Shown: in pieces, positions 3,317 through 51,057 of the stretch | Layout: each line of letters begins with the position of its first letter | Numbering within the stretch: the stretch's first letter is position 1 | DNA from: Phytohabitans rumicis | GTDB lineage: Bacteria; Actinomycetota; Actinomycetes; Mycobacteriales; Micromonosporaceae | Reading direction: 5' to 3' | Length of the DNA: 64,000 nt | Assembly (NCBI RefSeq): GCF_011764445.1 | Contig: NZ_BLPG01000001.1 | Coordinates: forward strand, 4,092,001-4,156,000 | Position numbers and translations under genes: made by a program | Notes under the pieces: model-generated | Told to the model about the DNA's origin: nothing | Seen by the model: only the letters and a program-made list of their open reading frames with translations | The model's database searches: none

Positions 3317-3415
3317 GATCAAGGGCTTGCCCGTCGATCAAGGGCATATGGCCGTGGTTTGATCTCTTTTCCACGACCATTCGCCCTTGATCGACGCAGA
3401 AGTCCTTGATCGACG
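3317..3415. repeat. 99-bp palindromic intergenic repeat, copy A
   Basis: One of five related elements in the window (others at 18512, 31100, 31634 and 50834). It begins and ends with GATCAAGG / CCTTGATC and contains a nested inverted repeat CGATCAAGGGC ... GCCCTTGATCG around a central TTTGATC. In this copy the inner arms pair imperfectly (catatggccgtgg against ccacgaccattcg). It lies between two convergent gene ends, so a bidirectional terminator role is possible. No coding capacity is seen. Confidence 0.85.
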
Positions 3416-3440
3416 AAAGAGGAGAGAGCGGAACGGAGGG

Positions 3441-3884
3441 CTAGCTCTCCAGGGAAGCGCGGAGGGCGCGTTCGGTGGATCGCTGGTCTTCGGTCATGTT
3501 CTCCAGTTCCTCGGACTCGCCGACCTGGCGCACCTCGACCACGGCTTCCTGGCCCGGCCCGACCGCAACGTCCACGGGGCAGCGGGAGGCCCACTCGATG
3601 GCCTCTTCCCTCGATCGCACCTGGATGATGTAGAAGCCGGCGATCAGCTCCTTCGCCTCGGCAAACGGCCCGTCGACAACGGTGCGCTTGCCGTCCTTGT
3701 AGATCACCCGCGCGCCGGACGCGCTGGGGTACAAGCCCTCGCCCGCGAGCAGCACCCCGGCCTTGGCCAGGTCCTCGTTGTACTTCAGCATCGCGCCGAT
3801 CAGCTCCTCCGGCGGCTGGGAGATGGCGTCGGTGGAATCGCCATCGACCTGCGGGTCGCCCTTGAGCAGCAGCATGAATCGCAT
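3441..3884 (-). CDS. YCII/DGPF-domain protein
   Basis: Small cytoplasmic protein of about 147 residues starting MRFMLLLKGDPQ. It has the YCII-family features of an N-terminal beta strand, a central KAGVLLAGEGLYPS and the phrase VVDGPFAEAKELIAGFYIIQ, which matches the DGPF signature. These proteins are dimeric ferredoxin-like folds of uncertain function, often paired with ECF sigma factors; no sigma factor is adjacent here. The ATG at 3884 has GAAGGAG eight bases upstream, which decides the start over a longer reading from 3941. The gene is convergent with the phosphatase gene across repeat copy A. Confidence 0.88.
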   Translation of the reverse strand: MRFMLLLKGDPQVDGDSTDAISQPPEELIGAMLKYNEDLAKAGVLLAGEGLYPSASGARVIYKDGKRTVVDGPFAEAKELIAGFYIIQVRSREEAIEWASRCPVDVAVGPGQEAVVEVRQVGESEELENMTEDQRSTERALRASLES

Positions 3885-3959
3885 CGTCGACACTCCTTCG
3901 ATCTGTCGGAGCCACCCTGGCTCTATCAGGGCGTCGAACAAGGGAGAGCGACTTCGACC

Positions 3960-5173
3960 TTAGACGCCGAAAAATCTTCCGGGCGCCAGCCGGTGCCGCG
4001 GGTCGAAGCGGTTCTTGACCCGGCGTACGACGTCGGGGCTCGCGCCTGGACCCCACATGTCGACGGCCTCCCGCACCGCGGCCGGGGCGGACACGACGAC
4101 GCAGGAGCCGGCCCGCCCGAGCAGTACGCCGCGGACGGCCTCCAGGATCGCGGTGATCCGATCGGGCTCGGTGCCCCGGGCAGTGCCGCGTGGATGACCC
4201 CGGCTCCGGCCGACCCGCGTACGGGCACGGTGACGCCGGCGGCGTCGCGTACGGCGTAGATCGCGGCGTGCAGGTCGGCGGTGGGCACGGTGATGCGCAG
4301 CGCCACGTCGCCGGCGCCGAACGGGTAGCGCCCCCACCACGGGGGTGCCTCGGTGCGGACCTCCGCGTCGCCGCCGAGCAGGTCGACGATCCGGGTGGAC
4401 CGCTCGGCCACCGCCCCGGGCTCGCCCTCCAGCAGGATCGCGAGGGTGCCGGGGCCGCGCGGAGCCCGCTGGCGGGGCACGAGTACGGGCTTGGTGGTCG
4501 GGAGGTCCAGCTCCACGGCGGCCACCTGGACCGAGCTGGCCTGCACCTCGCGGACCAGGTCGTACAGCTCCAGCGGGGTCCACACCGACCGCTGCACCCA
4601 GGCGCGCGCGGCCGGCTCGACGTGGACCCGGAACGTGGCGGAGACCAGTACGCCCAGGGCTCCGAACGACCCGCACAGCAACCGCCCGACGCCCTGGTCC
4701 GTGTCGCCGGAGTGGGTCAGCGTGCCGTCCCCGTTCACGTAGCTGACGCCGAGGATCTGGTCGGCGGCGGTGCCGTAGCGGTGGGCGAGCGGGCCGGACT
4801 CGTCGGCCGCGATCAGGCCGCCGATGGTGGCGCCGGCCGACGGGCTGTCGAGCGCGAGCCGGCGCCGGGACTGGCTCAGCACGGCCTGCACCGCGCGCAG
4901 CGGTGTGCCTGCGCCGATCTCCGCGAGGAACTCGCCGGGCGGGTGGTGCCAGACGCCGGCGAGCCGGGCGGTGTCGAGCACCAGGTCGGCGCGGGTCGGG
5001 CGGGAGCCCCAGTCGAGCTTCGTCCCGGCGCCCCGCGCGACGACGGCGAGGTCGTGCTCGGCGGCGAACCGCACCGTGGCGGCCACGCCGTCCACCGTGG
5101 CGGGTGCGGCGACCCAGCTGGCCGGCACACCGGCGACCGTGTCCGTCGCGCCGGCCAGCCGCACGAACCGCAT
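3960..5173 (-). pseudogene. FAD-binding oxidase, GlcE-like (frameshifted as sequenced)
   Basis: FAD-linked oxidase of the glycolate oxidase subunit GlcE/PCMH type. The first frame carries the FAD-binding phrases WVAAPATVDGVAATVRFA, ARGAGTKLDWG, SPSAGATIGGLIAADESGP and SFGALGVLVSATFRV. The typical C-terminus (NRFDPRHRLAPGRFFGV) continues in another frame. Reading joins correctly if one base is restored in the C run at 4174-4177, giving ...ALPGGTEPDRITAILEAV. A single lost base in a homopolymer suggests a sequence error rather than decay. The start is uncertain: ATG 5173 (MRFVRLAG) fits the family best, with alternatives at 5221 and 5257. No glcD or glcF partner is next to it, so the substrate is unknown. 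It is divergent from the peptidase gene at 5287. Confidence 0.75.
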
Positions 5174-5286
5174 CCCGCAGATGTCCACGAGTCCCCGAAA
5201 GATCGCGCCGCGTGTCGGCATCGAACAAGTGTACGACTGGCTGCCACCCGACGCCATCCCGAGGGCTGCCGGTAACGTGGTCGGAC

Positions 5287-7370
5287 GTGACCACCGAACC
5301 CGCTGCGACCCCGCCGGTTGCCAAGCGTGTCCCGGCCGAGCGCACCCACCACGGCGACACCGTCGTGGACGAGTACGCCTGGCTCGCCGACAAGGAAGAC
5401 CCGGACACCATCGCCTACCTCAAGGCGGAGAACACGTACACCGAGGCCGCCACGGCTCACCTGAAAGAGCTGCGCGAGACGCTGTTCGAGGAGACCAAGC
5501 GGCGCACCAAGGAGACCGACCTGTCGGTGCCCAGCCGCAAGGGCGGCTACTGGTACTACACGCGCACGGTCGAGGGGCAGCAGTACGGCATCCAGTGCCG
5601 GCGGGCGGTACGGGACGGCGAGACGGACCCACCGTCCACGGTGGACGGCACCCCGCTGGACGGCGAGGAGGTGCTGCTCGACGGCAACGCGCTCGCCGAG
5701 GGGCACGAGTTCTTCGCCCTCGGTACGTTCGACGTCAGCCCGGACGGGCGGTGGCTGGCGTACAGCACGGACTTCGCCGGCGACGAGCGCTTCACGCTGC
5801 GGGTCAAGGACCTGAACACCGGCGAGGTGCTGGGCGACGAGGTGCCGGACACGTTCTACGGCACCGCGTGGTCGGCTACCGGCTCGACGCTGTTCTACCT
5901 GACGGTCGACGAGGCGTGGCGGCCGTACCGGGTGTGGCGGCACGCGGTGGGCACCCCGGCCGGCGACGACGTCATCGTGTACGAGGAGAGCGACGAGCGC
6001 TTCTGGGTCGGTGTCGACCTGACCCGCTCGGAGAACTTTGTCGTTATCGACGTACACAGCAAGGTGACCAGCGAGGTGCTGGTGATCCCGGCGAGCAACC
6101 CGACCGGCGAGCCGGCCGTCATCGCGCCGCGCCGGCAGGGCGTCGAGTACTCGGTGGAGCACCACGGGCATCGCTTCCTGATCCTGCACAACGACGGTGC
6201 GGAGGACTTCGCGCTGGCGTACACCTCGGCGGACGCCCCGGGCGAGTGGGCGACGCTCATCCCGCACTCCCCGGGCACCCGACTGGAGTCGGTCGACGCG
6301 TTCGCCAACCATCTGGTCGTCTCGCTGCGCAAGGACGGCCTGACCGGCCTGCGCGTGCTGCCGGTGGGCTCCACCGACACGTACGACATCGACTTCCCGG
6401 AGCCGCTCTACAGCGTCGGCCTGGAGGCCAACCCGGAGTACGCGACGGCGACCGTGCGCCTGCACTACGCCTCGCTGGTCACCCCGGATTCGGTGTACGA
6501 CTACGACCTGGTGACCCGGGAGATGGTGCTGCGCAAGCAGAAGCCGGTGCTGGGCGGGTTCGACCCGGCGGCGTACGAGCAGCACCGCGACTGGGCCCTG
6601 GCCGACGACGGCACCCGGGTGCCGATCTCGCTGGTGTGCAAGGCCGGCACCCCGAGGGACGGCTCGGCGCCGTGCGTCATCTACGGGTACGGCTCGTACG
6701 AGGCCAGCATGGATCCCTGGTTCTCGATCCCGCGGCTGTCCCTGCTGGACCGTGGCGTGATCTTCGCGGTCGCGCACATCCGCGGCGGCGGTGAGCTGGG
6801 CCGCCGGTGGTACGAGGACGGCAAGATGCTGGCCAAGAAGAACACGTTCACCGACTTCGTGGCCTGCGCGCGGCACCTGGTCAAGGCCGGCTGGACCTCG
6901 TCCGACCGGCTCGTGGCTCGGGGCGGCTCGGCCGGCGGCCTGCTGATGGGCGCGGTCGCCAACCTCGCCCCGGACGCGTTCGCCGGGGTGGTCGCGCAGG
7001 TGCCGTTCGTCGACGCGCTCAACTCGATCCTCGACCCGTCGCTGCCGCTGACCGTGACCGAGTGGGAGGAGTGGGGCAACCCGCTCGACGACCCGAGGTG
7101 TACGCGTACATGAAGTCGTACACGCCGTACGAGAACGTGTCCGCTGTGGACTATCCGCCGATCCTGGCGGTGACCAGCCTCAACGACACCCGGGTGCTCT
7201 ACCACGAGCCGGCGAAGTGGATCGCCCGCCTGCGGGCCACCACCTCGGGCACCTACCTGCTCAAGACCGAGATGGGCGCCGGCCACGGCGGCCCGAGCGG
7301 CCGGTACGACTCCTGGAAGGAGGAGGCGTTCGTCGCCTCCTGGGTCCTGGACCGGCTGGACCGAGCCTAG
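5287..7370 (+). pseudogene. prolyl oligopeptidase, S9A family (frameshifted as sequenced)
   Basis: Cytoplasmic serine peptidase that cleaves short peptides after proline; the reconstructed length of about 694 residues is normal for S9A. The N-terminal beta-propeller begins after RTHHGDTVVDEYAWL. The hydrolase domain has the nucleophile motif RGGSAGGLLMG, the aspartate in SLNDTRVLYHE and the histidine in GAGHGGPSGR. The frame breaks at about 7092-7096, where CCGAGG should read CCGGAGG (LDDPEVYAYMKSYTPYENV); one base is missing. With that base restored all catalytic residues are in one protein, so a sequencing error is the simplest explanation. The start is a GTG at 5287 with a weak ribosome site. 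The stop overlaps the convergent dehydrogenase stop in CTAG. Confidence 0.85.
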
Positions 7371-8194
7371 GGCCGCGCCGGGCGGTGTGCCGGGCCGCCG
7401 GGCCGGCTGGCCAGGTCGGCCCAGATGTCGTCCGGCACCGGGACGCCCTCGCGCACGCGGGTCATGCGGGTGGCCGACTCGATCTCGCCGGGGATCGGGC
7501 CGGCGCCCGCCGACAGCAACGCGCAGAACTCCTCGGCCCGCTGCCGAAACTCGGCCACCGGCCGGAACGCCGCGATCTCCATCGCGACGATGACCGTGCC
7601 GTTGCTGTCCTCCCGGGTGGTGAGGCCGGACACGCCCGCGCCGGAGAGCAGGCCGCCGATCAGCTCGATCAGCACGCCCAAGCCGTGACCGGCCTCCGGC
7701 GCGGCGAAGTCGACCACCAGCGCCGGTCGCCCCGGCGCGCGCGGCGCCGCTAGCGCCAGCGGGTTGGTGCCGCGACCGCCGAGGGCCAGCCCGACCGTCT
7801 CGTCGTTCGCGAGCAGCTGGACGTACTCGCCGAGCCGGCCGACGTGTTCGCAGTTGTTGATCGCGACGCTGGCCACGCCGTACTGGCGGGCCAGCCGCCG
7901 GACGTGGTCGACCGCCGTGCGGGCCGCGAGCTGCCCGAAGCCGCTCCGCCCGTCCACCACGGCCGCCGCGGCGCGGACACCGCCCAGCTGCGGCCGCGCC
8001 GCCGGGTCGATCCGCCCCGCGCGCACCATTTCGAGGTACGACGGGAGCCGGCGAACGCCGTGCGAATCGTGCCCGACGAGATCCGACTCGACCAGCGACG
8101 CGGCGACCACCTCGGCACCGGCGCGCGGGGTGCCGGCGGCGAGCAGCACCTTCGTCGCGATCGCGGTCAGGTCGTTGGCATGGACAAGGGTCAT
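7367..8194 (-). CDS. malate/L-lactate dehydrogenase (Ldh_2) family oxidoreductase, short form
   Basis: NAD(P)-dependent oxidoreductase of the AllD/ComC/YlbC family. Recognisable blocks are DLVGHDSHGVRRLPSYLEMV near the N-terminus, VASVAINNCEHVGRLGEYV with the conserved histidine, TNPLALAAP, and a C-terminal REGVPVPDDIWADLA. It has 275 residues against about 340 usual. The segment that normally lies between the strand ending VVDFA and the helix GHGLGVLIELIGG is about 55 residues shorter, in frame. Whether it is still active is unclear. The ATG at 8194 begins MTLVHANDLTAIA. It is convergent with and overlaps the peptidase stop by three bases. Confidence 0.78.
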   Translation of the reverse strand: MTLVHANDLTAIATKVLLAAGTPRAGAEVVAASLVESDLVGHDSHGVRRLPSYLEMVRAGRIDPAARPQLGGVRAAAAVVDGRSGFGQLAARTAVDHVRRLARQYGVASVAINNCEHVGRLGEYVQLLANDETVGLALGGRGTNPLALAAPRAPGRPALVVDFAAPEAGHGLGVLIELIGGLLSGAGVSGLTTREDSNGTVIVAMEIAAFRPVAEFRQRAEEFCALLSAGAGPIPGEIESATRMTRVREGVPVPDDIWADLASRPGGPAHRPARP

Positions 8195-8310
8195 GAATGT
8201 GGTCCCAGACGGTGCGTTCCGCTACACGGGAACCTAATTCCATCACGCTGGTATGGAAGCCGTAAAGCCGAGCGCTTTTGGACACTTGCCGCGCTACGCC
8301 CGAGACCGCC

Positions 8311-9252
8311 TCAGCCCAGCGCGGCCGCCAGCAGCGCCGGATCCACATTGCCGCCCGAGATCACCGCGACCGTACGGCCAGCGGGCAGCTCCTCGCGGTG
8401 GAAGAGGCGCGCCGCGGCGGCCACCGCCCCGCTCGGCTCGACGACCAGCCGGCTCTCCCGGACGATCCGGGCCATCGCGGCACGGATCTCGTCCTCGCTG
8501 ACGGTCACCACGCGATCGAGCCGGGCGCGCAGGTGGGCGAGGGTCAGCTCGGACAGGTTCACCCGCACGCCGTCCGCGATCGTGCGGTAGCTGCGCTCCT
8601 CCGGCCAGGTCACCAGGCGGCCGGCGGCCAGCGACTCCTGGGCGTCGGCGGCCAGCTCGGGCTCCACGCCGATCACGACCGCCCGCTCGCTGAGCGCGGT
8701 GACCGCGGTCGCCACGCCCGAGGCGAGCCCGCCGCCGCCCACCGGCACCAGCACGACGTCCACGTCCGGCAGGTCCTCGACGATCTCCAGCCCGGCGGTG
8801 CCCTGGCCGGCGATGACGTCCCGGTGGTCGTACGGCGGGATGAGCGTGAGGCCGCCCTCGGCCGCCCGCTGCTGGGCGACCGTGAGCCGGTCCGCCGGTG
8901 GTACGAGGACGACCTCGGCGCCGAGCGCCCGCACCTGTTCGATCTTGACGGTCGGGGCCACGTCGGGGATCACCACGGTGCAGGGTGCACCGGCCTTGCG
9001 GGCGGCGTACGCGAGGGCCTGCCCGTGGTTGCCCGACGAATGCGTGATCACGCCGCGGGCCCGCTGCTCGGCGGAGAGCCGGGCGACCGCATTGGTGGCC
9101 CCGCGCAGCTTGAACGAGCCGACCGGTTGCAGGCTCTCCGGCTTGAGCAGGAGCTGGTCGTCCCACCGGCAGGGCAGGAGCGGGGTGCGCAGGGTCACCC
9201 CGGCGATGCTGCGGGCCGCGGCGCGTACGTCCTCGATGGAGATCAGCTGCAT
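8311..9252 (-). CDS. threonine/serine dehydratase (PLP fold type II)
   Basis: Pyridoxal-phosphate enzyme of about 313 residues that deaminates threonine or serine to the 2-oxo acid. The PLP lysine lies in VGSFKLRGATNA, the substrate loop in SSGNHGQALAYAA, and the phosphate-binding glycine loop in VPVGGGGLASGVA. There is no C-terminal ACT regulatory domain, so it resembles the catabolic or promiscuous racemase-like forms rather than biosynthetic IlvA. The start at ATG 9252 (MQLISIEDVRAAA) fits the family; a GAGG lies rather far upstream. It is divergent from the membrane protein at 9303 with only 50 bp between. Specificity cannot be set from sequence. Confidence 0.88.
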   Translation of the reverse strand: MQLISIEDVRAAARSIAGVTLRTPLLPCRWDDQLLLKPESLQPVGSFKLRGATNAVARLSAEQRARGVITHSSGNHGQALAYAARKAGAPCTVVIPDVAPTVKIEQVRALGAEVVLVPPADRLTVAQQRAAEGGLTLIPPYDHRDVIAGQGTAGLEIVEDLPDVDVVLVPVGGGGLASGVATAVTALSERAVVIGVEPELAADAQESLAAGRLVTWPEERSYRTIADGVRVNLSELTLAHLRARLDRVVTVSEDEIRAAMARIVRESRLVVEPSGAVAAAARLFHREELPAGRTVAVISGGNVDPALLAAALG

Positions 9253-9302
9253 GGCGTCAAGAATGCGCCTCGACGTCCCGGACAAAAGCCTAGAATCGCC
9301 CA

Positions 9303-9863: not shown

Positions 9864-9975
9864 GGCGTGTCTGGTGGATCTTGTGGGTGCGAGGCGAGGT
9901 CCAGGCGGCGACCGGTGCCGCTGGTCGTCGTCTGGGCCCGCCGCAGCCCCGCAAAGATCCGCCAGACACGCCCTA
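9861..9975. mobile_element. 115-bp MITE-like element with 22-bp terminal inverted repeats
   Basis: Left end 9861-9882 and right end 9954-9975 are inverted repeats matching at 21 of 22 positions (TAGGGCGTGTCTGG...). The outermost TA at each end could be a duplicated TA target, as for IS630/Tc1-type insertions; this is inference. The interior has no open frame. Both flanking genes terminate in TAG codons supplied by the element ends, one on each strand. Confidence 0.75.
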
Positions 9976-11956: not shown

Positions 11957-11959
11957 CAA

Positions 11960-18511: not shown

Positions 18512-18610
18512 GATCAAGGTCTTGCCCGTCGATCAAGGGCAAACGGTCGTGCTTTGATCTCCAATCCACGACCGTTTGCCCTTGATCGACGCGAAAGTCC
18601 TTGATCGGCG
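18512..18610. repeat. 99-bp palindromic intergenic repeat, copy B
   Basis: Same family as the elements at 3317, 31100, 31634 and 50834. Inner arms pair fully: GGGCAAACGGTCGTG on the left and CACGACCGTTTGCCC on the right. It lies between convergent gene ends, just before a separate terminator. Confidence 0.88.
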
Positions 18611-26546: not shown

Positions 26547-26547
26547 T

Positions 26548-29571: not shown

Positions 29572-30373
29572 CCACTGGTTGCACGCCCTCGGCCAGGAGT
29601 TGGCCCGGCAGCAGCTCGGCCCGGACGTGGCACGCCACGTCATCGCCGAGGCCGCCGCCCACCTGCGCGACAGCGGCCAGCCGGCGCTGCGGGCCTTCGG
29701 CACGCCACAGGGATACGCGACCGCCGTCGCCGAGAGCCTCACCGCCCAGCGCCGCCCACCACGGCGTCCGCCCGGCGGCGTCCGGCTCGACGCCCGCCGG
29801 ATCACCAAGCGGTACGGCCGCCGCGCCGTCCTCAAGGACGTCAACCTGACCGTACGGGCGGGCGAAGTGGCGGCCATCGTCGGCGCCAACGGATGCGGCA
29901 AGAGCACGCTCCTGCGGATCTGCGCCGGCCTGGTCTCCCCCGACTCGGGCACGGTGGTCGTGGACGGCGTGCTGGGCTACTGCCCGCAAGACGCCGGCAC
30001 GTACGACTTCCTCCTGCCCGACGAGCACTTCGTCCTGGTCGGCGCCGGCCGGGGCATGGACCGCGCCCAGTCCCGGCGGGTCGGCCGGGCCGGCGCCGCC
30101 ACGTTGCAGTGGGAGCCGACCGTTGGCGTGCAGGCGCGCCACCTGTCCGGCGGCACCCGGCAAAAGCTCAACCTGGTGATGGCGTCCATGGGCGACCCCG
30201 ACGTGCTGCTGCTGGACGAGCCGTACCAGGGGTTCGACCGCGGCACGTACCTCGACTTCTGGCAGCACGTGTGGCGCTGGCGCGACGAGGGCCGGGCGAT
30301 CGTGGTGGTTACCCACCTGCTGAGCCAACTGGACCAGGTGGATCAGGTGGTCACGCTGGAGGGAGCCGCATGA
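29561..30373 (+). CDS. ABC transporter ATP-binding protein with N-terminal HAAS-like domain
   Basis: A 270-residue protein. Residues ~1-62 (LARQQLGPDVARHVIAEAA ... LRAFGTPQGYATAVAESL) resemble the helical HAAS/permease-prefix domain that usually sits in the protein encoded next to a PadR regulator. Residues ~72-270 are an ABC ATPase: Walker A GANGCGKSTLLRICAG, signature LSGGTRQKLNLVMA, Walker B DVLLLDEPYQGFD, H-loop VTHLLSQL. The ATPase is short. GGGAGG lies 11 bases before ATG 29561, inside the PadR gene. It is coupled to the permease by ATGA. Confidence 0.87.
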   Translation: MNNDHWLHALGQELARQQLGPDVARHVIAEAAAHLRDSGQPALRAFGTPQGYATAVAESLTAQRRPPRRPPGGVRLDARRITKRYGRRAVLKDVNLTVRAGEVAAIVGANGCGKSTLLRICAGLVSPDSGTVVVDGVLGYCPQDAGTYDFLLPDEHFVLVGAGRGMDRAQSRRVGRAGAATLQWEPTVGVQARHLSGGTRQKLNLVMASMGDPDVLLLDEPYQGFDRGTYLDFWQHVWRWRDEGRAIVVVTHLLSQLDQVDQVVTLEGAA

Positions 30374-31152
30374 GGATCATTACCGTCGCCGAGATGGCGT
30401 TGCGCGAGATGCTGCGCCGCCGGGGCGTACTCGTCCTGCTGCTGACCCTCCCGCTGGCGTTCTACCTGGTCCGGCGGGGCGACCACGTCGGGCAGTCGAT
30501 CCGGTTCCTGTTGCTGGGCATCGCCTGGGCGGTCAGCACCGCGGCGCTCTTCGCCAGCGGCACCAGCCGGCCGATCGAGCCCCGCCTACGGCTGTCCGGC
30601 TACCGCAGCCACCACCTCTACCTCGGTCGGTTGGCCGCGATGTGGCTACTCGGCCTGTCCATCGCGGCAGCATTCTTCCTGCTGATCGCCGTCGACCACG
30701 GCGACCAGGTACGCCTCGGCGCGGTCGCCCTGGCGATGCTGCTCACGGTCACGGTGGCCGCACCGTTCGGCCTGCTGATCGGGGCGGTGGTGCCGCGCGA
30801 CCTGGAGGGCACACTGCTCCTGCTCGTCGTGGTCGGCGTCCAGATGATGATCGACCCGGCCGACTCCGTTACGCGGATCACGCCGTTCTGGTCCAGCCGC
30901 GAGCTCGGCACGTACGCCGTCGACCACACCGGCACCGAGTACCTGACCCGCGGCCTGCTGCACGGCGTCCTCTTCACGCTGGCGGCAACGCTCTTGGTCG
31001 CGCTGCTCTCCACCCTCCGCCTCCGAACCCGCCCCACATCCGCTACCTCTAACCCATCCCCACTCCTCACCCCGTCCCCTCCATCCCTCTCCCTGCGTCG
31101 ATCAAGGACTTCCTCGTCGATCAAGGGCATATGGTCGTGCTTTGATCTCTAA
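30370..31152 (+). CDS. ABC transporter permease subunit (3' end reads into a repeat)
   Basis: ABC-2-like integral membrane protein with about six helices, starting MRIITVAEMALREMLRRRGV. It is the partner of the ATPase at 29561 (ATGA overlap). Up to about residue 222 it looks normal. The last ~38 residues (after STLRLRTRP) are low in hydrophobicity, and the final 18 are encoded by repeat copy C, which supplies the stop codon. A one-base loss in the C run near 31033-31036 would instead give an end ...RTRPHIRYL at about 31051, so the tail may be an artefact. Substrate unknown. Confidence 0.82.
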   Translation: MRIITVAEMALREMLRRRGVLVLLLTLPLAFYLVRRGDHVGQSIRFLLLGIAWAVSTAALFASGTSRPIEPRLRLSGYRSHHLYLGRLAAMWLLGLSIAAAFFLLIAVDHGDQVRLGAVALAMLLTVTVAAPFGLLIGAVVPRDLEGTLLLLVVVGVQMMIDPADSVTRITPFWSSRELGTYAVDHTGTEYLTRGLLHGVLFTLAATLLVALLSTLRLRTRPTSATSNPSPLLTPSPPSLSLRRSRTSSSIKGIWSCFDL

Positions 31153-31198
31153 TCCACGGCCGTTTGCCCTTGATCGACGCGAAAGTCCTTGATCGACG
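31100..31198. repeat. 99-bp palindromic intergenic repeat, copy C
   Basis: Same family as 3317, 18512, 31634 and 50834. It overlaps the permease 3' end and contains its stop codon. It is matched without mismatch over about 80 bp by copy D in reverse orientation 430 bp further on. Inner arms are imperfect in this copy (CATATGGTCGTG against CACGGCCGTTTG). Confidence 0.88.
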
Positions 31199-31256
31199 CA
31201 GGGTGCGGGTCGTGGGTGGGGTGGCGGCGGTCCTGGGGTGTGCGCCTGCCCCCAGA

Positions 31257-31375
31257 AGGGGACCCCTATTGGGTGTTCGCGCGTGAGGAGGGCGCCCCTA
31301 TACCTGCGTGGGCGGGTGTAGGGGCGCCCTCCTCAGGGTCCGCACCCCATAGGGGCCCCTTTTGGTGGGCGGGGC
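31257..31375. repeat. nested long hairpin in the non-coding island
   Basis: The stretch 31199-31633 has no credible gene. Its main feature is a nested palindrome: inner perfect 16-bp arms 31275-31290 and 31319-31334 (GAGGAGGGCGCCCCTA) and outer, slightly imperfect arms around AAGGGGACCCCTATTGGGTG and its complement near 31345-31372. A second hairpin follows at 31407-31467. Function unknown; strong termination or a repeat insertion are possibilities. Confidence 0.65.
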
Positions 31376-31406
31376 GGGCGGCGAGGCCGCTCGAATCAAG
31401 ATCTGC

Positions 31407-31467
31407 GCAATGTCCCGGAAACTGCTGCCTCAGCGACCCTAGGAAGCAGCAATGTCCCCGACATTGC
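31407..31467. repeat. imperfect hairpin with GCAATGTC ends
   Basis: Outer arms GCAATGTC (31407-31414) and GACATTGC (31460-31467) enclose an inner pair CTGCTGCCT / AGGAAGCAG. It looks like another dispersed intergenic hairpin of the kind frequent in this island. No coding potential. Confidence 0.5.
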
Positions 31468-31633
31468 CTCCGGAGGGCCGGCCCAGTGTCGGGGCTCGCA
31501 CACCGCCTCGGCGCCGAACGCAGGGCGCCTCGCCCGCGCCAACCGTGGGCCGCACCCCGCCACCCTCGGCACGGGTGGGCCGCCACGCTCAAGCGCCCAC
31601 GCCCGGCACCCAACCCGCTCCGCCCGCGCCGTC

Positions 31634-31713
31634 GATCAAGGACTTTCGCGTCGATCAAGGGCAAACGGCCGTGGATTAGAGATCAAAGCACGACCATATG
31701 CCCTTGATCGACG
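31634..31713. repeat. palindromic intergenic repeat, copy D (inverted, truncated)
   Basis: Reverse complement of copy C over about 80 bp, lacking the last ~19 bp of the family. With copy C it flanks the hairpin-rich stretch 31199-31633 as a long inverted pair. The 17-bp tandem repeat begins 28 bp after it. Confidence 0.85.
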
Positions 31714-31740
31714 GCGCGGGGCCGAGGCCCGGGCGCGAGC

Positions 31741-31842
31741 CGGGCGCGGGCGCGGGCCGGGCGCGGGCGCGGGCCGGGCGCGGGCGCGAGCCGGGCGCGG
31801 GCGCGAGCCGGGCGCGGGCGCGAGCCGGGCGCGGGCGCGGGC
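31741..31842. repeat. 17-bp GC-only tandem repeat, six units
   Basis: Six consecutive units of CGGGCGCGGGCGCGAGC, with A/G variation at one position (GAG or GGG), and no other difference. It lies 25 bp beyond the stop of the minus-strand kinase gene at 31868. Composition is essentially all G and C; copy number probably varies between strains. Confidence 0.85.
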
Positions 31843-31867
31843 TGGATATAGGGGCGGGAGTTGAGGG

Positions 31868-43009: not shown

Positions 43010-43095
43010 GTAGGGCTCCTAAAGGGAAGCAGGCGCTAGTGAGGTGGTGATGAGGGAAGCTGCCCAGGCTTCCGCGCCGGCTCCGTGGCAGAGAT

Positions 43096-43140: not shown

Positions 43141-43178
43141 ATACGGAGGCAGTGGCGTCCGGCAGGCCGTGTCAGATC

Positions 43179-43224: not shown

Positions 43225-43239
43225 CTCGAAGGACCAGTA

Positions 43240-44247: not shown

Positions 44248-44280
44248 AACCTCCGCGCGAACATCGAAACACTCAGATGT

Positions 44281-44724: not shown

Positions 44725-44736
44725 CGCTGCCGCCAC

Positions 44737-44786
44737 GGGAGTCGGGGGTTTGCCTGTCAGGCGAGACCGGCAGAGCCCCGACTCCC
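44737..44786. terminator. hairpin terminator between convergent genes
   Basis: Arms GGGAGTCGGGG (44737-44747) and CCCCGACTCCC (44776-44786), with an inner GCCTGTCAGGC. It lies between the ends of the hypothetical gene (44724) and the LURP-like gene (44796). Confidence 0.78.
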
Positions 44787-44795
44787 CACCGAGGA

Positions 44796-45371
44796 TCAGC
44801 GGCCCTGGAGCGCGTCCAGGCCCACCGCCATCGCGATGACGAGGCGGCGGTCGAGGCGCGGGTCCTGGATGCTGACGACGTACTTGTCGCGCAGGCCCCA
44901 CTTCTTCACCACCGAGAACGCCGGCTGGCCGTCCTCATACACGAAGTCGAAGTGGTAAGGCAGGAACGACAGCGACTCGACGAAGCGGCGCAGGATCGCC
45001 ACCAGCTGGCTGCGCTCCTGGCCGGTCGCCGGGGGCATGCCGCCCTGCTCGACGATCCATGTCGAGCGCAGCAGCGACCGCTTGAAGTCCTTGCGGAACA
45101 GGCCGATCTGCGCACCGGCCGGGTCGGTCACGTCGTACGTGGCGCCCAGATCCATCACCGAGCGGGCCTTGAAGCCCAACACGGGCTGCTGCTTGGTGTC
45201 GTCGGTGTAGAGCGTCACCTGCTCCTTGAAGGCCATGCGCTTCTGCTGCGCGAACGCGACCATCCCGGCCTCGGAGCCGTCCGGCCCGGCCGCGTGCACC
45301 TCGTACTGATTCACCATCATGCGGATCCGCTGCCGCACGATGAGCTCCTGCAATCCCTGAATAGTATTCAC
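44796..45371 (-). CDS. LURP-one-related / scramblase-like protein
   Basis: A 191-residue protein. The tubby-like beta-barrel fold of the LURP1-related family is suggested by repeated strand-turn elements (MVNQYEVHAAGPDGSEAG, LGFKARSVMDLGATYDVTDP, QIGLFRKDFKRSLLRSTWIV) and a hydrophobic C-terminal helix (RRLVIAMAVGLDAL). Bacterial members are uncharacterised; the fold binds membranes or lipids in eukaryotic relatives. Start GTG 45371 with no strong ribosome site; ATG codons around residue 18-19 are alternatives. It is followed by the terminator at 44737-44786. Confidence 0.75.
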   Translation of the reverse strand: MNTIQGLQELIVRQRIRMMVNQYEVHAAGPDGSEAGMVAFAQQKRMAFKEQVTLYTDDTKQQPVLGFKARSVMDLGATYDVTDPAGAQIGLFRKDFKRSLLRSTWIVEQGGMPPATGQERSQLVAILRRFVESLSFLPYHFDFVYEDGQPAFSVVKKWGLRDKYVVSIQDPRLDRRLVIAMAVGLDALQGR

Positions 45372-45389
45372 CCGCGGGAGTGTGCCACA

Positions 45390-46298
45390 TCACTGCACTC
45401 GCAGAATTTGGCGTCCTGACTGCACCAGGGCCATCACATCCGCCGATGCCCGCTCCGGCGACCATACGAGGCCGTACGTCATGCGCAGGTCACCGGCGTC
45501 CAGCGGCACAAACCGCACGTCGGGCCGGCGTACCGTCTCCACCAGCAGGTGCGGCGCGGCCAGCAGCCCGCGTCCGGCCGCGACCAGGTCGAGCGCCGCC
45601 GGCAGGTCGTCGAGGTCGGCCGGGACGGCCGGCGAGCGCAGCCGGGAGGCCAGCGCGTGCCACACACTGCCCGGCGGGCGCAGGCGCGGCAGGAGTACGC
45701 CGCACAACTGGTCCAGCCCCAGCCGGGTGGCCGTCGCCAGCCGGCTGGCCGCCGGGACGGCCAAATGCGTCACGGGTACGTGGAACCGAGCCGTCATCGC
45801 GTACCCGGTCGGGAAGGGTGTGGTCATGAACGCCGCGGCCGCGTATCCCTGGGTGAGCTCGGCGGTCGCCGCGCTCCACCCGGCCCGGCGCAGCTCCACC
45901 TCGATCTCCGGCGAGCGCCGCGCCAACCGGCGGGCGACCCGCGCCGCGAGCGCCCCGACGAGCGGGCAATAAGCCAGCCTGATGGATTCGCTCGCCGGCT
46001 CGGCCAGCCGGGCCGCCTCGGCGGTGAAGGCCGCGGCGTGGTCGAGCATCGCCTCGGCGTACGGCAGGAGCACCTTGCCCGCGTCGGACAGCGCCACCTC
46101 GCGGCTGCTCCGGTCGAAGAGGCGCAGCCCCAGCGTGCGCTCCAGGCGCGCCACCGCCTGGCTGACCGCCGGCTGTGTCATGCCCAGCGCGGCCGCCGCC
46201 CGGGAGAAGCTCAGCCGCTCCGCCACCTGCACGAAGCAGGCGATCTCACGCTGCGGCGGGCCCGGGTCCACACGTCCCAGTATGCCCACCGGGCACAT
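45390..46298 (-). CDS. LysR-family transcriptional regulator
   Basis: A 302-residue regulator. The N-terminal helix-turn-helix (residues ~15-72) has CFVQVAERLSFSRAAAALGM, TQPAVSQAVARLERTLG and LFDRSSREVALSDAG. The periplasmic-binding-like effector domain follows from ~95. It is divergent from metE, the arrangement of metR-metE in enterobacteria, so control of methionine synthesis is possible, though the effector cannot be deduced. ATG 46298 has no ribosome site; GTG codons at 46289 and 46271 are alternatives. An ATAA-N7-TTAT site overlaps the start. Confidence 0.9.
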   Translation of the reverse strand: MCPVGILGRVDPGPPQREIACFVQVAERLSFSRAAAALGMTQPAVSQAVARLERTLGLRLFDRSSREVALSDAGKVLLPYAEAMLDHAAAFTAEAARLAEPASESIRLAYCPLVGALAARVARRLARRSPEIEVELRRAGWSAATAELTQGYAAAAFMTTPFPTGYAMTARFHVPVTHLAVPAASRLATATRLGLDQLCGVLLPRLRPPGSVWHALASRLRSPAVPADLDDLPAALDLVAAGRGLLAAPHLLVETVRRPDVRFVPLDAGDLRMTYGLVWSPERASADVMALVQSGRQILRVQ

Positions 46299-46311
46299 AA
46301 GCAGCGGTTAT
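46297..46311. promoter_or_regulatory. LysR-type box ATAA-N7-TTAT
   Basis: An AT-rich dyad (ATAAGC-AGC-GGTTAT, one mismatch in the arms) with the T-N11-A form of LysR sites, covering the start of the LysR gene and lying 41 bp before metE. Confidence 0.45.
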
Positions 46312-46351
46312 AGACGGCTCGCGGGCTCTTTCTCCGGTGCAGGATGCCCGG

Positions 46352-48519
46352 GTGCGATCGACAATCCTGGGCTATCCGCGGATCGGCCCGCAGCGGGAAC
46401 TGAAGAAGGCGCTCGAGGCGTACTGGGACGGGCGGGCCGGCCGCGCGGACCTCGACCGGGTGGGCGCGCAGCTGCGCGCCGCGGCCTGGCAGCGCCTCGC
46501 GGCCCTCGGCCTCGACACCCTGCCATCCAACACCTTTTCCGAGTACGACCAGGTGCTGGACACCACGGTCCTGCTCGACGCGGTGCCGGCGCGCTACCGG
46601 GCGGCCGCCGACCCGTACTTCGCGATGGCCCGGGGCGCCGACGGGCTCCCGCCGCTGCGCATGACGAAATGGTTCGACACCAACTACCACTACATCGTCC
46701 CGGAGATCGGTCCGGACACGGCGTTTCGGCTGGTCGCCGACAAGCCACTGCGCGAGGTACGCGAGGCGCGGGCGCTCGGGTACGCCACCCGGCCGGTGCT
46801 GGTCGGACCGGTGACGTTCCTGCTGCTGGCCGACGGCCCGGCCGGCTTCGACCCGCTGGGCCGCCTGGACGACGTGCTCGCCGTGTACGCGGAGCTGCTC
46901 GGCGCCCTGAAGCGGGAGGGCGTCGACTGGGTCCAACTCGACGAGCCGGCCCTGGTCACCGGCGCGGGAATCGATGCCGCGCGGCGGGCGTACGGGCGCC
47001 TGGGCGGGCTCACCGACCGGCCGCGCCTGCTCGTCGCCTCCTACTTCGGGGAGCTGGGCGACGCGCTGCCGGTGCTGGCCGCCACGGAGGTCGAGGCGAT
47101 CGCGGTGGACCTGGTCCGCGGCGACCCGGTCGACCCCGCGCTGCTCGGCGGCAAGACGCTCGTGGCCGGCGTGGTGTCCGGACGCGACCCGTGGCGCACC
47201 GACATGGACGCCGCGCTGCACACCCTGCGGCGGTACCCGGACGTCGTGGTCAGCACGTCCTGCTCGCTGCTGCACGTGCCGTACGACCTGGATCAGGAGC
47301 CCGACCTCGACCCTGAGCTGCGGGCCCGGCTGGCGTTCGCCGACCAGAAGGTGGGCGAGGTGGTGGAGCTGGCCGCGCGCCTGGCCCGGGGCGAGGCCGG
47401 GGCGCCGCCGGCGGCCTCGCCAGCGACTCCCGTCGTTGGGTCCACATGGGACAGTCGGGCGCCGTATCGGTTCCGCGCCGCGGCGCAGGCGGCCCGGCTT
47501 GGGCTGCCCGAGCTGCCGGTCACCACGATCGGTTCCTTCCCGCAGACCGGTGAGCTGCGCGCCGCCCGGGCCGCGCTCACCGCCGGGCGGCTGTCCGAGC
47601 CGGAGTACGAGCGCCGGATCGAGGCCGAGATCGAACGGGTGATCCGGCTGCAGGAGCGGCTCGGCATCGACGTACTGGTGCACGGCGAGCCGGAGCGCAA
47701 CGACATGGTGCAGTACTTCGCCGAGCACCTGGACGGCTTCGCCACCACCCGCCACGGCTGGGTCCAGTCGTACGGCTCGCGGTGCACCCGCCCGCCCATC
47801 CTGCACGGCGACGTGAGCCGCCCGGCGCCCATCACCGTGCGCTGGACCGGTACGCCCAGTCGCTGACTGACCGGCCGGTCAAGGGCATGCTCACCGGACC
47901 GGTCACGATCGTGGCGTGGTCGTTCGTCCGGCGGGGCATCCCGCTGCGCGACGTCGTGGCCCAGGTCGCCGAGGCGGTACGCGACGAGGTGCGCGACCTC
48001 GCGTCGGCGGGCACCTCGATCATCCAGGTCGACGAGCCGGCCCTGCGCGAACTCCTGCCGCTACGCCGCGAACGGCAGGACGAGTATCTACAGTGGGCGG
48101 TCGCCGCGTACCGGCACGCGACCTCCAGCGCCGGCGACACCGCGCAGATCCACACCCACCTGTGCTACTCGAACGCCGACGAGGTCATCGCCGCCATCGA
48201 CGGTCTCGACGCGGACGTGACGACGATCGAGTCCGCGCGCTCGGGCGGGCGCGTCCTCGGCGAGCTGGACGGCTTCGCCCGCGGCCTCGGCCCCGGCGTG
48301 TACGACATCCACTCGCCCCGCGTCCCGGCCGTCGACGAGGTTGTGGACATGCTGGAGGCCGTGCTGAAGGTCGTGCCCGGCGACCGGCTGTGGGTCAACC
48401 CCGACTGCGGCCTCAAGACGCGTGGCTACGGCGAGGTCTCGGCCGCGCTCGCCCATCTGGTCGAGGCCGCGCAAACAATCAGGGAGTCCACCCCGCGACC
48501 GCTTCGAGCAGCCGATTGA
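46352..48519 (+). pseudogene. metE: cobalamin-independent methionine synthase (frameshifted as sequenced)
   Basis: Enzyme transferring a methyl group from 5-methyltetrahydropteroyltriglutamate to homocysteine. The N-terminal domain starts VRSTILGYPRIGPQRELKKA; the C-terminal half has [16 protein letters not shown], zinc-site segments [27 protein letters not shown] and [16 protein letters not shown]. About 722 residues, slightly under the usual 750. The frame breaks near 47843-47846: one base after TGG gives PITVRW[14 protein letters not shown]. With it restored, all zinc ligands (His, Cys, Glu, Cys) are in one protein, so a sequence error is likely. GTG 46352 has AGGA upstream. The 3' end overlaps the convergent gene at 48479 by 41 bp. 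Confidence 0.88.
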
Positions 48520-49684
48520 CATCTGATTCGTTGTTGTAATGCACCAGTCCGGCGCGCACCGCGCTACCCGCGTCCCGGATCCCGAGCGCGCCGGTGAGTT
48601 CCCAGGCGTAGTTGTGTCCATTCCACACGTTGACCCGCCGCTGCGCGAGGTGGGCGGCGACCTCGCCCGGCGTACGGCCGGCGACCGTGAAATACACCGT
48701 CGCGGTGCGCCGTGCAGGCTTGCCGTACGTCGTCACATGCGCCATCGACTCCAGCCCGCTCAGCAGGGTGCCGAAGAGCGCGCGCTCGTGCTCCTCGGCG
48801 GCGGCGAGGGACACGAGCAGCCGCTCCCGCCGGGTGCCGGTGACCGCGCCGGCCAGCCCCGCCAGGTGCTCGACCGCGGCGACCACCCCGGCGAAGTCGG
48901 CGAACGGCGACGTACCGGTCTCGAAGCGCGCCGGGACGGTGTCCGGTGACGACGCGAGCTTGTCGGGGCGGAGCGTCTCCAGCAGCCCGGGATCGGCGAC
49001 GACTGCGCCGATGTGCGGACCCGACCACTTGTAGGCGCTGGTCGCGTAGAAGTCCGCGCCCAGCGCGACCATGTCCGTCGGGCCGTGCGCGCTCGCGTGC
49101 ACCCCGTCGACGTAGCTCAACGCGCCGGCGGCCCGCGCCTTCGCCGTGATGGCGGCGACGTCCGGGCGGGTGCCCAGCACGTTGCTCGCCGCGGTCACCG
49201 CCACCAGCCGGGTACGCGGGCCGAGCAGCGCGTCGTACTGCTCCACCCCCAGCTCCCCGGTCGCCGTGTCGGCCTCGGCCCAGCGCACCGTCGCCCCGGC
49301 GCGGTCGGCGGCCTGGACCCACGGCCGCACGTTCGCGTCGTGGTCGAGCCGGGAGACGACCACCTCGTCGCCCGGACCCCAGTCCCGCCCGATCGCGTAC
49401 GCCAACCGGTACGTCAGGGTGGTCATGTTGGGCCCGAGGATCACGCCGTCCGGCTGCCCGCCGACGAGGTCCGCGACCGCGGCACGGCACTCGGCGACGA
49501 TGCCGTCCGAGCGGTGGCTGGCTGGGAACGCCCCGCCGACGTTGCCGATCCCCCGCCGGTACGCCTCCGCGATCGCGTCGATGACCGGCTGCGGCACCTG
49601 GGTACCGGCCGCGCCGTCCAGGTAGGCGTAGCCGTCCGCGAGCGCCGGATAGGCCGCGCGGACCGCGTGTACGTCGAAGGGCAT
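48479..49684 (-). CDS. cysteine desulfurase-like PLP enzyme (class V aminotransferase fold)
   Basis: A 401-residue fold-type I PLP enzyme. Typical segments: [56 protein letters not shown] (PLP-binding Asp/His) and the Schiff-base lysine in [16 protein letters not shown]. It belongs to the CsdA/SufS-related group often named cysteine desulfurase-like protein TIGR01976, whose substrate is uncertain. No suf genes are nearby. ATG 49684 has GAGGAAG nine bases upstream. The gene ends inside the convergent metE gene. Confidence 0.85.
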
Positions 49685-49698
49685 GCGCCCAGTCTTCC

Positions 49699-50268
49699 TC
49701 ACCGCGCCCGTCGCGGCCGCATGACCAGCGCCGCGACGTGGTACGTGCACGGCGTCGGGCCCGCGTTGGCGTACCCGTGGACGGCGTCGGCGGCGAAGTA
49801 GACCGAGTCACCCGCGTGCAGCTCGACGGCCCGGTCGCCGACGGTCAGCAGCAGCGTCCCGGACTCGACCACGACGTACTCGTGGGAGCCGGCCGCGTAG
49901 GCCGGGAAGTCGCCGGCGTCGCAGCCCACCGGCAGGGTGGACCGGATCCACTCGAAGTTCACGCCCGGCACGACCGGGCTCAGGATCACCCGCCGCCAGC
50001 CGCCGGGCTCGTCCACCGCGTCCTGATCGGCCGCGCGCCGCACGATGACCCGGTCCCGGTCCGGCTCCGCGACCAGCGCCGCCAGGGGTACGCCCAGCCC
50101 GTCGGCGATGCGGGCGAGCACGACGACGGTGGGCGCCTTCTGACCGCGTTCCACCGAGGAGAGCATGCTCACGCTCACCGACGCCGTGCCGGCCAGCGCA
50201 TGGAGGGTGAGCGCCCGGTCGAGCCGCAACGCCTGGATCCGCCGGCCGAGCTCAACAAGATCCAGCAT
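49699..50268 (-). CDS. XRE-family regulator with C-terminal cupin domain
   Basis: A 189-residue regulator. Residues ~5-62 are a helix-turn-helix (LGRRIQALRLDRALTLHALA, SVSVSMLSSVERGQKAPTVV). Residues ~105-185 form a small-molecule-binding cupin (GSHEYVVVESGTLLLTVGDR, LHAGDSVYFAADAVHGYAN). This architecture usually senses small metabolites. It lies 14 bp after which the PLP enzyme gene begins on the same strand, so the two may be co-transcribed. ATG 50268 follows an AT-rich TATTATAG without a ribosome site, suggesting a leaderless message. Confidence 0.9.
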   Translation of the reverse strand: MLDLVELGRRIQALRLDRALTLHALAGTASVSVSMLSSVERGQKAPTVVVLARIADGLGVPLAALVAEPDRDRVIVRRAADQDAVDEPGGWRRVILSPVVPGVNFEWIRSTLPVGCDAGDFPAYAAGSHEYVVVESGTLLLTVGDRAVELHAGDSVYFAADAVHGYANAGPTPCTYHVAALVMRPRRAR

Positions 50269-50270
50269 TT

Positions 50271-50298
50271 CGCTATAATAACGACCGTGTCCGCTATA
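50271..50298. promoter_or_regulatory. CGCTATA direct repeat at divergent starts
   Basis: CGCTATA occurs at 50271-50277 and 50292-50298, 21 bp apart (two helical turns), spanning the start regions of the XRE-cupin gene and the divergent GNAT gene. Likely binding site of the XRE-cupin protein; inference from position. Confidence 0.45.
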
Positions 50299-51057
50299 GA
50301 GAAATCAGTCCGGTCGGCCACGGCCGCCGACATGGCTGCGATTGCCTCGATCTACGCCCACTACGTCGCCCACACCGTGGCCACGTTCGACGAGGTCGCG
50401 CCCACCGCGGACGACTGGCGGCGCAAGCGCGACGACCTGACCGGGCGCGGCCTGCCGTTCCTGGTGGCGCTCGCCGGGGACGAGGTCGCCGGGTTCGCGT
50501 ACGCCGGCCCGTTCCGGCCCAAGCCCGCGTACCGGCACACCGTCGAGGACACCATCTACCTCGCCCCCGCGTACACCGGAAAGGGCCTGGGCAGCACGTT
50601 GCTGGAGGCCGTGCTCGCCGGCTGCGCCGAGGCGGGCGCCCGGCAGGTGGTGGCCGTCATCGCGGACACCGGCAGCGACGCGTCCGCCGCCCTGCACCGC
50701 CGCTTCGGCTTCGCCGAAGCCGGCCGCCTGGTCAACGTGGGCTACAAACACGCCCGCTGGATCGACACCCTCCTCATGCAACGCCCCTCTAACGCCCACC
50801 CCGCGCCCGCCCGCGCCCAGCGCGGCCCCCGCCGATCAAGGCTTTCCCCGCCGATCAAGGGCATACGGTCGTGGTTTGATCTCCAATCCACGACCGTATG
50901 CCCTTGGTCGACGCAAAAGTCCTTGATCGGCGGGGGCCGGGCTGGGGCTGGGGGAAAAATCTCGGGGCCGTGTCGAATGTGGGCCACCTTGTGCGACGCC
51001 CTGGTAGAGGCTGGCCACATCGGGCACAGCCCAGCAGACCGAGGAGCGGAACGATGA
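50287..51057 (+). CDS. GNAT acetyltransferase, phosphinothricin/MnaT-like (3' extension suspect)
   Basis: N-acetyltransferase of the PAT/YncA group: RSATAADMAAIASIYAHYVA, TFDEVAPTADDWRRK, AGFAYAGPFRPKPAYRHTVE, the acetyl-CoA loop YTGKGLGSTLLEAVL and SDASAALHRRFGFAEAGRL. Family members end shortly after WIDTLLMQRPL. Here the frame runs on about 85 residues through repeat copy E to 51057. One extra C in the run 50784-50787 would give LMQRPL and a stop at about 50792, so the natural gene probably ends there. GTG 50287 starts inside the CGCTATA repeat region. Substrate likely an amino acid analogue or a methionine derivative. Confidence 0.85.
   Translation: MSAIEKSVRSATAADMAAIASIYAHYVAHTVATFDEVAPTADDWRRKRDDLTGRGLPFLVALAGDEVAGFAYAGPFRPKPAYRHTVEDTIYLAPAYTGKGLGSTLLEAVLAGCAEAGARQVVAVIADTGSDASAALHRRFGFAEAGRLVNVGYKHARWIDTLLMQRPSNAHPAPARAQRGPRRSRLSPPIKGIRSWFDLQSTTVCPWSTQKSLIGGGRAGAGGKISGPCRMWATLCDALVEAGHIGHSPADRGAER
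50834..50932. repeat. 99-bp palindromic intergenic repeat, copy E
   Basis: Same family as 3317, 18512, 31100 and 31634. Inner arms pair fully: GGGCATACGGTCGTG on the left, CACGACCGTATGCCC on the right. Compared with copy B the change A to T on the left is matched by T to A on the right, preserving pairing. Unlike the others it lies between two genes in the same direction. Confidence 0.88.

What the first reader, a model, noticed from the sequence alone, without database searches (positions are those of the whole stretch)
3317..50932. Dispersed ~99-bp palindromic repeat family with a compensatory base change
Five copies (3317-3415, 18512-18610, 31100-31198, 31634-31713 inverted, 50834-50932) share nested GATCAAGG/CCTTGATC arms and a variable inner stem. 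Copies B and E differ at one stem position, GGGCAAACGG versus GGGCATACGG, and each has the matching change in the opposite arm (CCGTTTGCCC versus CCGTATGCCC). Pairing is conserved while sequence changes, which argues for selection on a folded DNA or RNA, or for amplification of a hairpin element (REP/REPIN-like). Four of five copies lie at convergent gene ends. One copy per ~13 kb would mean hundreds in a genome of this kind.
Basis: seen in the sequence. Interest (0 to 1): 0.75.

Follow-up and report, generated by a model that had tools for sequence, protein, structure and literature searches.

The report
Dispersed species-specific bacterial DNA hairpins
A soil bacterium carries several hundred near-identical DNA palindromes, mostly in the gaps where genes end; sister species have other versions or few to none, and the enzyme known to spread similar repeats was not found, so how they spread is open.

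Summary
The repeat is real and large. The outer-arm palindrome GATCAAGGGC-N37-GCCCTTGATC occurs 523 times in the 10.7-Mb genome, a Phytohabitans relative (Micromonosporaceae). A 2.02-Mb sample gave 175 copies; 165 have perfect outer arms, and 29 of 57 core positions never vary.

At variable stem positions the two arms change independently: 3130 of 3500 Watson-Crick cells against 3137 (sd 11) shuffled. Across 34 copies from 11 genomes the arms do change together (score 0.422 against 0.144, 0 of 500 shuffles). So each genome or subfamily has its own symmetric half-site inside a shared frame: GTCGATCWAGGGC-like arms and an asymmetric GATCTC loop.

By my own gene calls, copies prefer convergent gene ends (1.54 per kb; tandem 0.47, divergent 0.17). 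Places differ between species; four of six genomes of the genus have few or none. No Y1 (RAYT-type) transposase was detected in 13 genomes, nine of them copy-rich.

Best reading: a RAYT-free, REPIN-like mobile palindrome family amplified separately in several genera, perhaps standing in for terminator hairpins. The mobilising enzyme is unknown. New variant of a known kind.

The parts
3317..3415 (+). copy A: left 19-bp extension 3317-3335, 57-bp core 3336-3392, right extension to 3415; between convergent genes
18512..18610 (+). copy B: left extension, core 18531-18587, right extension; between convergent genes (FGGY kinase; a gene with a DUF5666 match just below that family's cut-off). The interval of 229 bp between alignment anchors is 45 bp in P. 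suffuscus
31100..31198 (+). copy C: left extension, core 31119-31175, right extension; left member of an inward-facing pair
31199..31633 (.). interior of the C/D pair, with other long palindromes (about 31230-31370) similar to interiors of other pairs
31634..31713 (-). copy D: core 31653-31709 on the minus strand, right extension at 31634-31652, no left extension; right member of the pair
50834..50932 (+). copy E: left extension, core 50853-50909 with one arm mutation (CCTTGGTC), right extension; between divergent genes

Best explanation
The repeats are copies of a small non-coding mobile palindrome: a REPIN-like element that works without a RAYT transposase. SHOWN: fixed anatomy (inverted outer arms close to GTCGATCWAGGGC, an inner stem of about 10 bp whose sequence differs by genome, an asymmetric loop with GATCTC; in this genome one further GATCAAGG motif 19 bp outside the right arm in nearly all copies and outside the left arm in about half); several hundred copies in this genome and many in other genera, few or none in four congeners; different places in different species; preference for spacers at gene 3' ends. 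INFERRED: copies are made by an unidentified enzyme that recognises the two half-sites symmetrically, as a dimer on double-stranded DNA or on a folded single strand, and whose specificity for the inner stem changes between lineages; amplification comes in waves, young and uniform in this genome, older and more varied in others; copies in convergent spacers are tolerated or used as bidirectional terminators in place of ordinary terminator hairpins.
For: Copy number by exact outer arms: 523 here, 326 in G004, and 0, 0, 0 and 1 in the four other genomes of the genus, the one in G002 being a real related single copy. Uniformity: of 102 places found by profile in 1.22 Mb, 92 score above 70 bits, none 30-70, 10 below 30. 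Variation only at set positions, arms independent within the genome but symmetric between genomes. Family reach: 31 of 121 genomes of the family match at E<=1e-4, nine of them with 25 or more of at most 44 scored matches; in the order sample 9 of 249 at 1e-6, one of them outside the family. Uniformity differs by genome: mean pairwise identity 0.88 in G000 (60 of 175 copies drawn), 0.95 in G052 (3), 0.72 in G032 (9, two subfamilies), 0.76 in G051 (3). Three G000 spacers with copies (988, 496 and 222 bp between anchors) are 76, 73 and 63 bp in G004; copy B's is 45 bp in P. suffuscus. Context: 87 convergent, 71 tandem, 15 divergent, 2 inside, of 175; in low-copy genomes 15 of 20 matches lie within 100 bp of a stop codon of a gene reading towards them. 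In convergent spacers with a single copy, 6 of 29 have another strong hairpin outside the copy, against 38 of 84 in spacers without a copy, p=0.027.
Against: No mobilising gene was found, and no copy was caught moving: species, not strains, were compared, and empty versus filled sites could also be deletions. No target-site duplication common to the copies. None of the ten genes searched (of 30 called in 16 intervals between neighbouring copies) is mobile. G077 (n=6, p=0.003) and G164 (n=10, p=0.02) show within-genome covariation, which a pure double-strand half-site model does not need. The conserved asymmetric loop is not what a plain dimer site needs. The near-absence of decayed copies in G000 could also mean that each copy is under selection for a host function. 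The terminator part rests on one modest p value and no transcript data.
Confidence: 0.6

Rival explanations
1. Host-selected bidirectional transcription terminators or 3' mRNA stabilisers: the hairpin is kept because transcripts need it, and the family is a favoured terminator cassette.
For: Per kb of spacer about 3 times denser at convergent than at tandem and 9 times denser than at divergent spacers; spacers with one copy tend to lack another hairpin; at one G000 site a different perfect palindrome stands where G004 has the element; in low-copy genomes 15 of 20 matches lie within 100 bp behind a stop codon, three of them (L089, L091, L095) between what read as solute-binding-protein and transporter genes (names from my reading of the translations).
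Against: Selection on the hairpin should favour pairing copy by copy; in G000 there is none, and 125 of 175 copies hold at least one non-pairing position among the outer 21. Sequence is constrained far beyond pairing. 90 of 121 family genomes showed no match. Fifteen of 175 copies lie between divergent genes.
Confidence: 0.2
2. Genome-wide binding sites of a host chromosome-organising or regulatory protein dimer (in the manner of parS, KOPS or matS, recalled), each copy under purifying selection.
For: 29 of 57 positions invariant in 175 copies while others vary freely, hardly any decayed copies, arms obey one degenerate half-site independently; 19-bp spaced extra motifs.
Against: Few or none in four of six genomes of the genus; positions mostly differ between G000 and G004; no marked strand bias in any chromosome block with copies; often in inward-facing pairs around other palindromes.
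Confidence: 0.12
3. Ordinary MITE: the deletion derivative of a DDE-type insertion sequence with GTCGATCWAGGGC terminal inverted repeats.
For: Inverted outer arms conserved between genera, patchy high copy number.
Against: The left boundary is not fixed (83 of 175 copies have an extra 19-bp unit); no consistent 3-9 bp target duplication; no transposase among the ten genes checked; conserved asymmetric middle.
Confidence: 0.08

Closest known systems
REPINs / REP sequences with RAYT transposases (Pseudomonas fluorescens SBW25; PMC3116915, abstract and passages seen)
   Same: Hundreds of extragenic inverted pairs of conserved ends able to fold into a hairpin, with a less conserved part between the ends.
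   Different: No Y1/RAYT gene found in 13 genomes; no GTAG tag; arms of about 24 bp; conserved asymmetric loop; no copy-by-copy compensatory changes in this genome, whereas the REPIN paper calls them common.
CGTC-tagged REPs (PMC3733652, abstract and passages seen)
   Same: Element begins CGTC; palindromic; mostly downstream of genes, at convergent and unidirectional sites; inverted dimers; no dedicated transposase known.
   Different: In CGTC REPs the tag is unpaired, stems are 8-9 bp, loops 4-5 bp and tails CCA-like; here CGTC pairs with GACG, the stem is about 24 bp and the loop about 13-15. The phyla listed there for CGTC and GTAG repeats do not include Actinobacteria in the passages seen, though untagged REP-like repeats of M. 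tuberculosis are mentioned.
MITEs of DDE insertion sequences (recalled; review PMC10969869 seen in the search listing only)
   Same: Short non-coding, inverted ends, high copy number.
   Different: Unfixed left end, no common target duplication, no parent IS seen.

Membership tests
REPIN/RAYT | high-copy extragenic inverted repeats folding into a hairpin | tested here: met
   523 copies; 173 of 175 sampled copies between called genes; folds
REPIN/RAYT | RAYT (Y1 HUH transposase, PF01797) in the genome | tested here: not met
   0 of 13 genomes, 9 of them copy-rich; controls rang in 5 of 14; G164 not tested
REPIN/RAYT | GTAG tag at one end of each REP | tested here: not met
   none seen at the ends of the consensus of 89 copies or of 34 aligned copies from 11 genomes
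REPIN/RAYT | compensatory changes within the genome | tested here: not met
   G000 3130 vs 3137 shuffled; G004 none; G077 and G164 do show some
CGTC REP | unpaired CGTC tag, 8-9 bp stem, 4-5 nt loop | tested here: not met
   CGTC pairs with GACG, stem about 24 bp, loop about 13-15
DDE MITE | fixed ends with target-site duplication | tested here: not met
   two left-end forms; best z 3.8 in 2380 tests (control 2.8) without and 3.3 in 2520 tests (control 2.7) with left extension; the best case concerns 9 of 92 copies
DDE MITE | autonomous IS with the same terminal repeats | tested here: inconclusive
   no dedicated search; none noticed in 2.02 Mb, and the other four fifths of the genome were not read
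IS91-type (Y2) mobilised element | Y2 transposase (PF04986) in copy-rich genomes | tested here: inconclusive
   0 of 20, but no control genome rang either
known RNA family | Rfam match at gathering score | tested here: not met
   only a tRNA in the window
intrinsic terminator | transcripts end at the copies | not testable with these tools
   no RNA data

The most novel reading that the evidence does not exclude
A RAYT-free hairpin mobility system of Actinobacteria: each lineage has its own symmetric barcode of about 10 bp in the stem, set in a shared frame (outer arms seen in eight genera; asymmetric loop with NGATCTC in 218 of 224 copies of seven genomes), and an unknown enzyme reads the barcode and processes the conserved loop, on the logic of single-strand hairpin transposition or rolling-circle origins (conserved loop, species-specific stem, flanking 19-bp direct repeats; the comparison is recalled).
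Probability: 0.3. Interest if true: 0.75.

Novelty: new variant of a known kind. Interest (0 to 1): 0.55.

Why it matters
REP-like repeats without a transposase are an open problem (the CGTC REP paper leaves it open). Here is a family in Actinobacteria with copy-rich and copy-poor genomes side by side in one genus, so the missing enzyme can be sought by comparing gene content. It is also a clean case in which a good-looking palindrome and a 'compensatory change' mislead: within the genome the arms vary independently, and only between genomes do they clearly change together.

Tried and rejected
Compensatory pairing as the rule in this genome: rejected. RAYT: not found. Y2 transposase: no answer, since no control rang. 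Common target duplication: not found. Extended stems in the flanks: 3.33 against 3.01 (sd 0.14) shuffled, marginal, not used. Strand bias by chromosome block: none marked. Phage or plasmid carriers: no match of the window element in plasmids or phages and of a G052 element in plasmids; 20 viral stretches matched a loose pattern but none is palindromic; stricter patterns 0. Genes between neighbouring copies: ten of 30 searched, nine with a Pfam match (one below its cut-off), none mobile. An orientation rule (left side towards the stop codon) is real in G000 convergent sites (69 of 87) but partly follows from inward-facing pairs; tandem sites 38 of 71, no bias; single copies 26 of 34 convergent, 22 of 34 tandem. 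It was not counted in other genomes. An apparent second form of the element in G004 with GGAACTAGCC beside the right arm is an artefact: that script, and the one, reversed the lower-case flanks of minus-strand rows without complementing them; I drew no count from those flanks.

Rows dropped: 4 of 179 palindromes with poor arms; 1 of 90 of unclear orientation; spacers outside 40-500 bp or with more than one copy (113 of 291 convergent pairs used); the G000 site 4223719 (2436 against 7 bp between anchors), left out of the empty sites as possibly rearranged. Sampling: of the 99 own-genome pieces only the 15 evenly spaced ones (L041-L055; 12 copies in 300 kb) were chosen without regard to copies; the others lie around the window or in stretches where earlier calls had listed copies. 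Gene calls are from my own codon-usage script, not a standard caller.

Print: searches showed no paper on this repeat in their listings; PMC3733652 (abstract and passages), PMC3116915 (abstract excerpt and passages) and PMC13155455 (passages; no mention of Phytohabitans or Micromonospor-) were opened. 'Not in print' is claimed only for those searches.

Full report
1. Observation. The five copies are present as described. In the window's genome (10,714,690 bases, 3 contigs) the half-site pattern with up to 3 mismatches has 582 forward and 585 reverse matches, against 2 and 0 for the reversed control. The exact palindrome of the outer arms occurs 523 times, control 0. Among the named loci found with one window protein the closest by DNA are Phytohabitans maris, P. 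flavus and P. suffuscus; Phytohabitans belongs to the Micromonosporaceae. The window's own species may be left out of that collection, so its name is not established here.

2. Anatomy. From 89 copies in 1.22 Mb and 175 copies in 2.02 Mb: a 57-bp core with inverted arms GATCAAGGGCRWAYGGYCGTG around an asymmetric loop STTYGATCTCYNATC; outside the right arm a further CCTTGATCG.CG at a 19-bp step (7 or 8 of 8 letters of CCTTGATC in 170 of 175 copies); the same unit outside the left arm is nearly all or none (7 or 8 of 8 letters in 83 copies, 0-4 in 91, 6 in 1). Of 57 core positions 29 never vary. A profile search of the first 1.22 Mb finds 102 places: 92 above 70 bits, none between 30 and 70, ten below 30; of the seven weak ones printed, six are partial matches. 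So decayed full copies are nearly absent.

3. Pairing. For the five clearly variable stem pairs the number of Watson-Crick pairs lies near or below the shuffled value (10/46: 130 vs 123.6, p 0.08; 11/45: 98 vs 90.6, p 0.10; 13/43: 71 vs 74.7; 16/40: 77 vs 95.2, fewer than nearly all shuffles; 19/37: 145 vs 145.7). Over 20 pairs: 3130 of 3500 against 3137.0, sd 10.8. At 16/40, mismatch C-A (58) is commoner than T-G (40), which RNA pairing on this strand would not favour. On average 1.2 of the 21 outer pairs per copy do not pair even with G-U allowed. The sister genome G004 (16 copies) also shows no excess (299 vs 302).

4. Between genomes the picture reverses. An alignment of 34 copies from 11 genomes in 8 genera (MAFFT, no structure used) has 91.6% paired cells, a covariation score of 0.422 against 0.144 shuffled (0 of 500) and 0.05-0.09 for slid partners; 16 of 24 pairs have changes on both sides. 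The copies were found by palindrome rules, by a profile or by a model that includes pairs, so the percentage paired leans towards structure; the two-sided changes are visible by eye: inner arms RWAYGGY (G000), RAAYGCA (G004), AAATACGT (G052), TTRTTCAC (G077), GGATTCC (G051), TTAGCGA (one G032 type). Within genomes, G077 (6 copies, 128 vs 119.9, p=0.003) and G164 (10 copies, 200 vs 192.8, p=0.02) show covariation; G032 (9 copies, 166 vs 146.1, p=0.0005) does so while mixing two subfamilies, and four copies of one of them alone do not (77 vs 77.5); G051 (3 copies, p=0.33) does not, and G052 (3) does not vary. I read this as symmetry of a recognised half-site that changes by lineage or subfamily. 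A folded single strand is not excluded, and the asymmetric loop, with NGATCTC in 218 of 224 copies of seven genomes, speaks for it; three of the six low-copy rows of the alignment lack that loop.

5. Distribution. Exact outer arms: G000 523, G004 326, another genus (G032) 3, G002 1 and G041 1; 295 of 300 family genomes none. The G002 hit is the single related copy of locus L081; the G041 hit has an unrelated interior. With model R1, 31 of 121 family genomes match at E<=1e-4; G000, G004, G032, G042, G051, G052, G077, G015 and G071 have 25 or more of at most 44 scored matches, both strands of a palindrome counting apart. In an order-wide sample, 9 of 249 match at 1e-6, one of them outside the family (G371, one palindrome), and a further copy-rich genome, G164, appears. 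Congeners G002, G003 and G005 share one related copy, with a right extension, between the same two genes (NlpC/P60-like and AlkA-like by my reading of the translations). Low-copy loci (20, 3 kb each) show no common neighbouring transposase gene by eye; in 15 of 20 the match lies within 100 bp of the stop codon of a gene reading towards it.

6. Placement and turnover. Of 175 copies: 87 convergent, 71 tandem, 15 divergent, 2 inside a gene call; per kb of non-element spacer 1.54, 0.47 and 0.17. Of 53 neighbour pairs under 1.2 kb, 38 face inward, 8 are ++, 7 are -- and none face outward. Interiors of 21 pairs were compared: many carry other long palindromes, several shared between pairs. In the region syntenic with G004, of 30 G000 copies 11 have anchors: 5 have some copy in the matching interval (two of them of the opposite orientation) and 6 have none; of 11 G004 copies, 5 have some G000 copy in the interval, 5 have none and 1 has no anchors. 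The window's C/D pair lies in a 988-bp interval that is 76 bp in G004; two other sites are 496 versus 73 bp and 222 versus 63 bp. In the opposite direction G004 has a copy in a 133-bp interval where G000 has a different palindrome. P. suffuscus has 45 bp between anchors where the window has 229 with copy B. At one G164 site none of 12 relatives fetched has the element behind the same gene; four of the twelve (G238, G278, G507, G510) match on both sides of the spacer, which ranges from about 3 bp (G507) to one with a different hairpin (G238, G278); the other eight match only on the left side. In G000, convergent spacers with a single copy hold another strong hairpin less often (6 of 29) than spacers without a copy (38 of 84), p=0.027.

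7. Machinery. PF01797, the RAYT domain, gave no match in 13 genomes including nine copy-rich ones, while five of 14 control genomes rang. PF04986 gave no usable answer. Ten of 30 genes lying between neighbouring copies were searched; none is mobile. No carrier was found among plasmids, phages or viral contigs. No target duplication common to the copies.

8. Reading. The patchy, wave-like, place-changing distribution is that of a mobile element; the anatomy is REPIN-like; the RAYT test fails; the DDE-MITE tests fail or are open. I therefore describe it as a REPIN-like family that works without RAYT, with the enzyme unknown, and do not file it as a REPIN. The strict conservation of every copy in this genome can come from recent spread or from selection on each copy; the heterogeneity in G032 (9 copies, two subfamilies) and G051 (3 copies), mean identity 0.72 and 0.76 against 0.88 in G000, favours waves of spread and decay, on small numbers.

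Noticed in passing
31199-31633 and interiors of other pairs in L003, L004, L007, L015, L020, L021, L023, L029: Other long palindrome families (for example a GTGAGTAGGGCGCCCCTATAC type and a GTGACTGGAACACCAGTGCTGTT type) sit between inward-facing element pairs.
   Followed up: partly
own genome sample, outside element neighbourhoods: Other repeated intergenic words (GCAAGGAAGGGCAC, AGGGCACCTTGTTA, TATGCAAAAAGCGA), 16-23 times each in 2.02 Mb and never within 700 bp of the element.
   Followed up: no
30370-31152: A frame with weak ABC2-membrane matches runs into copy C and ends at a TGA inside its loop; the G004 relative seems to end differently.
   Followed up: no
31720-31850: GC-rich short tandem repeats next to copy D.
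   Followed up: no
61914-61988: tRNA-Lys gene (ttt anticodon).
   Followed up: no
L089 and L091 (G005, G003): A shared single copy of a related palindrome between what read as a solute-binding-protein gene and a transporter ATPase gene.
   Followed up: partly
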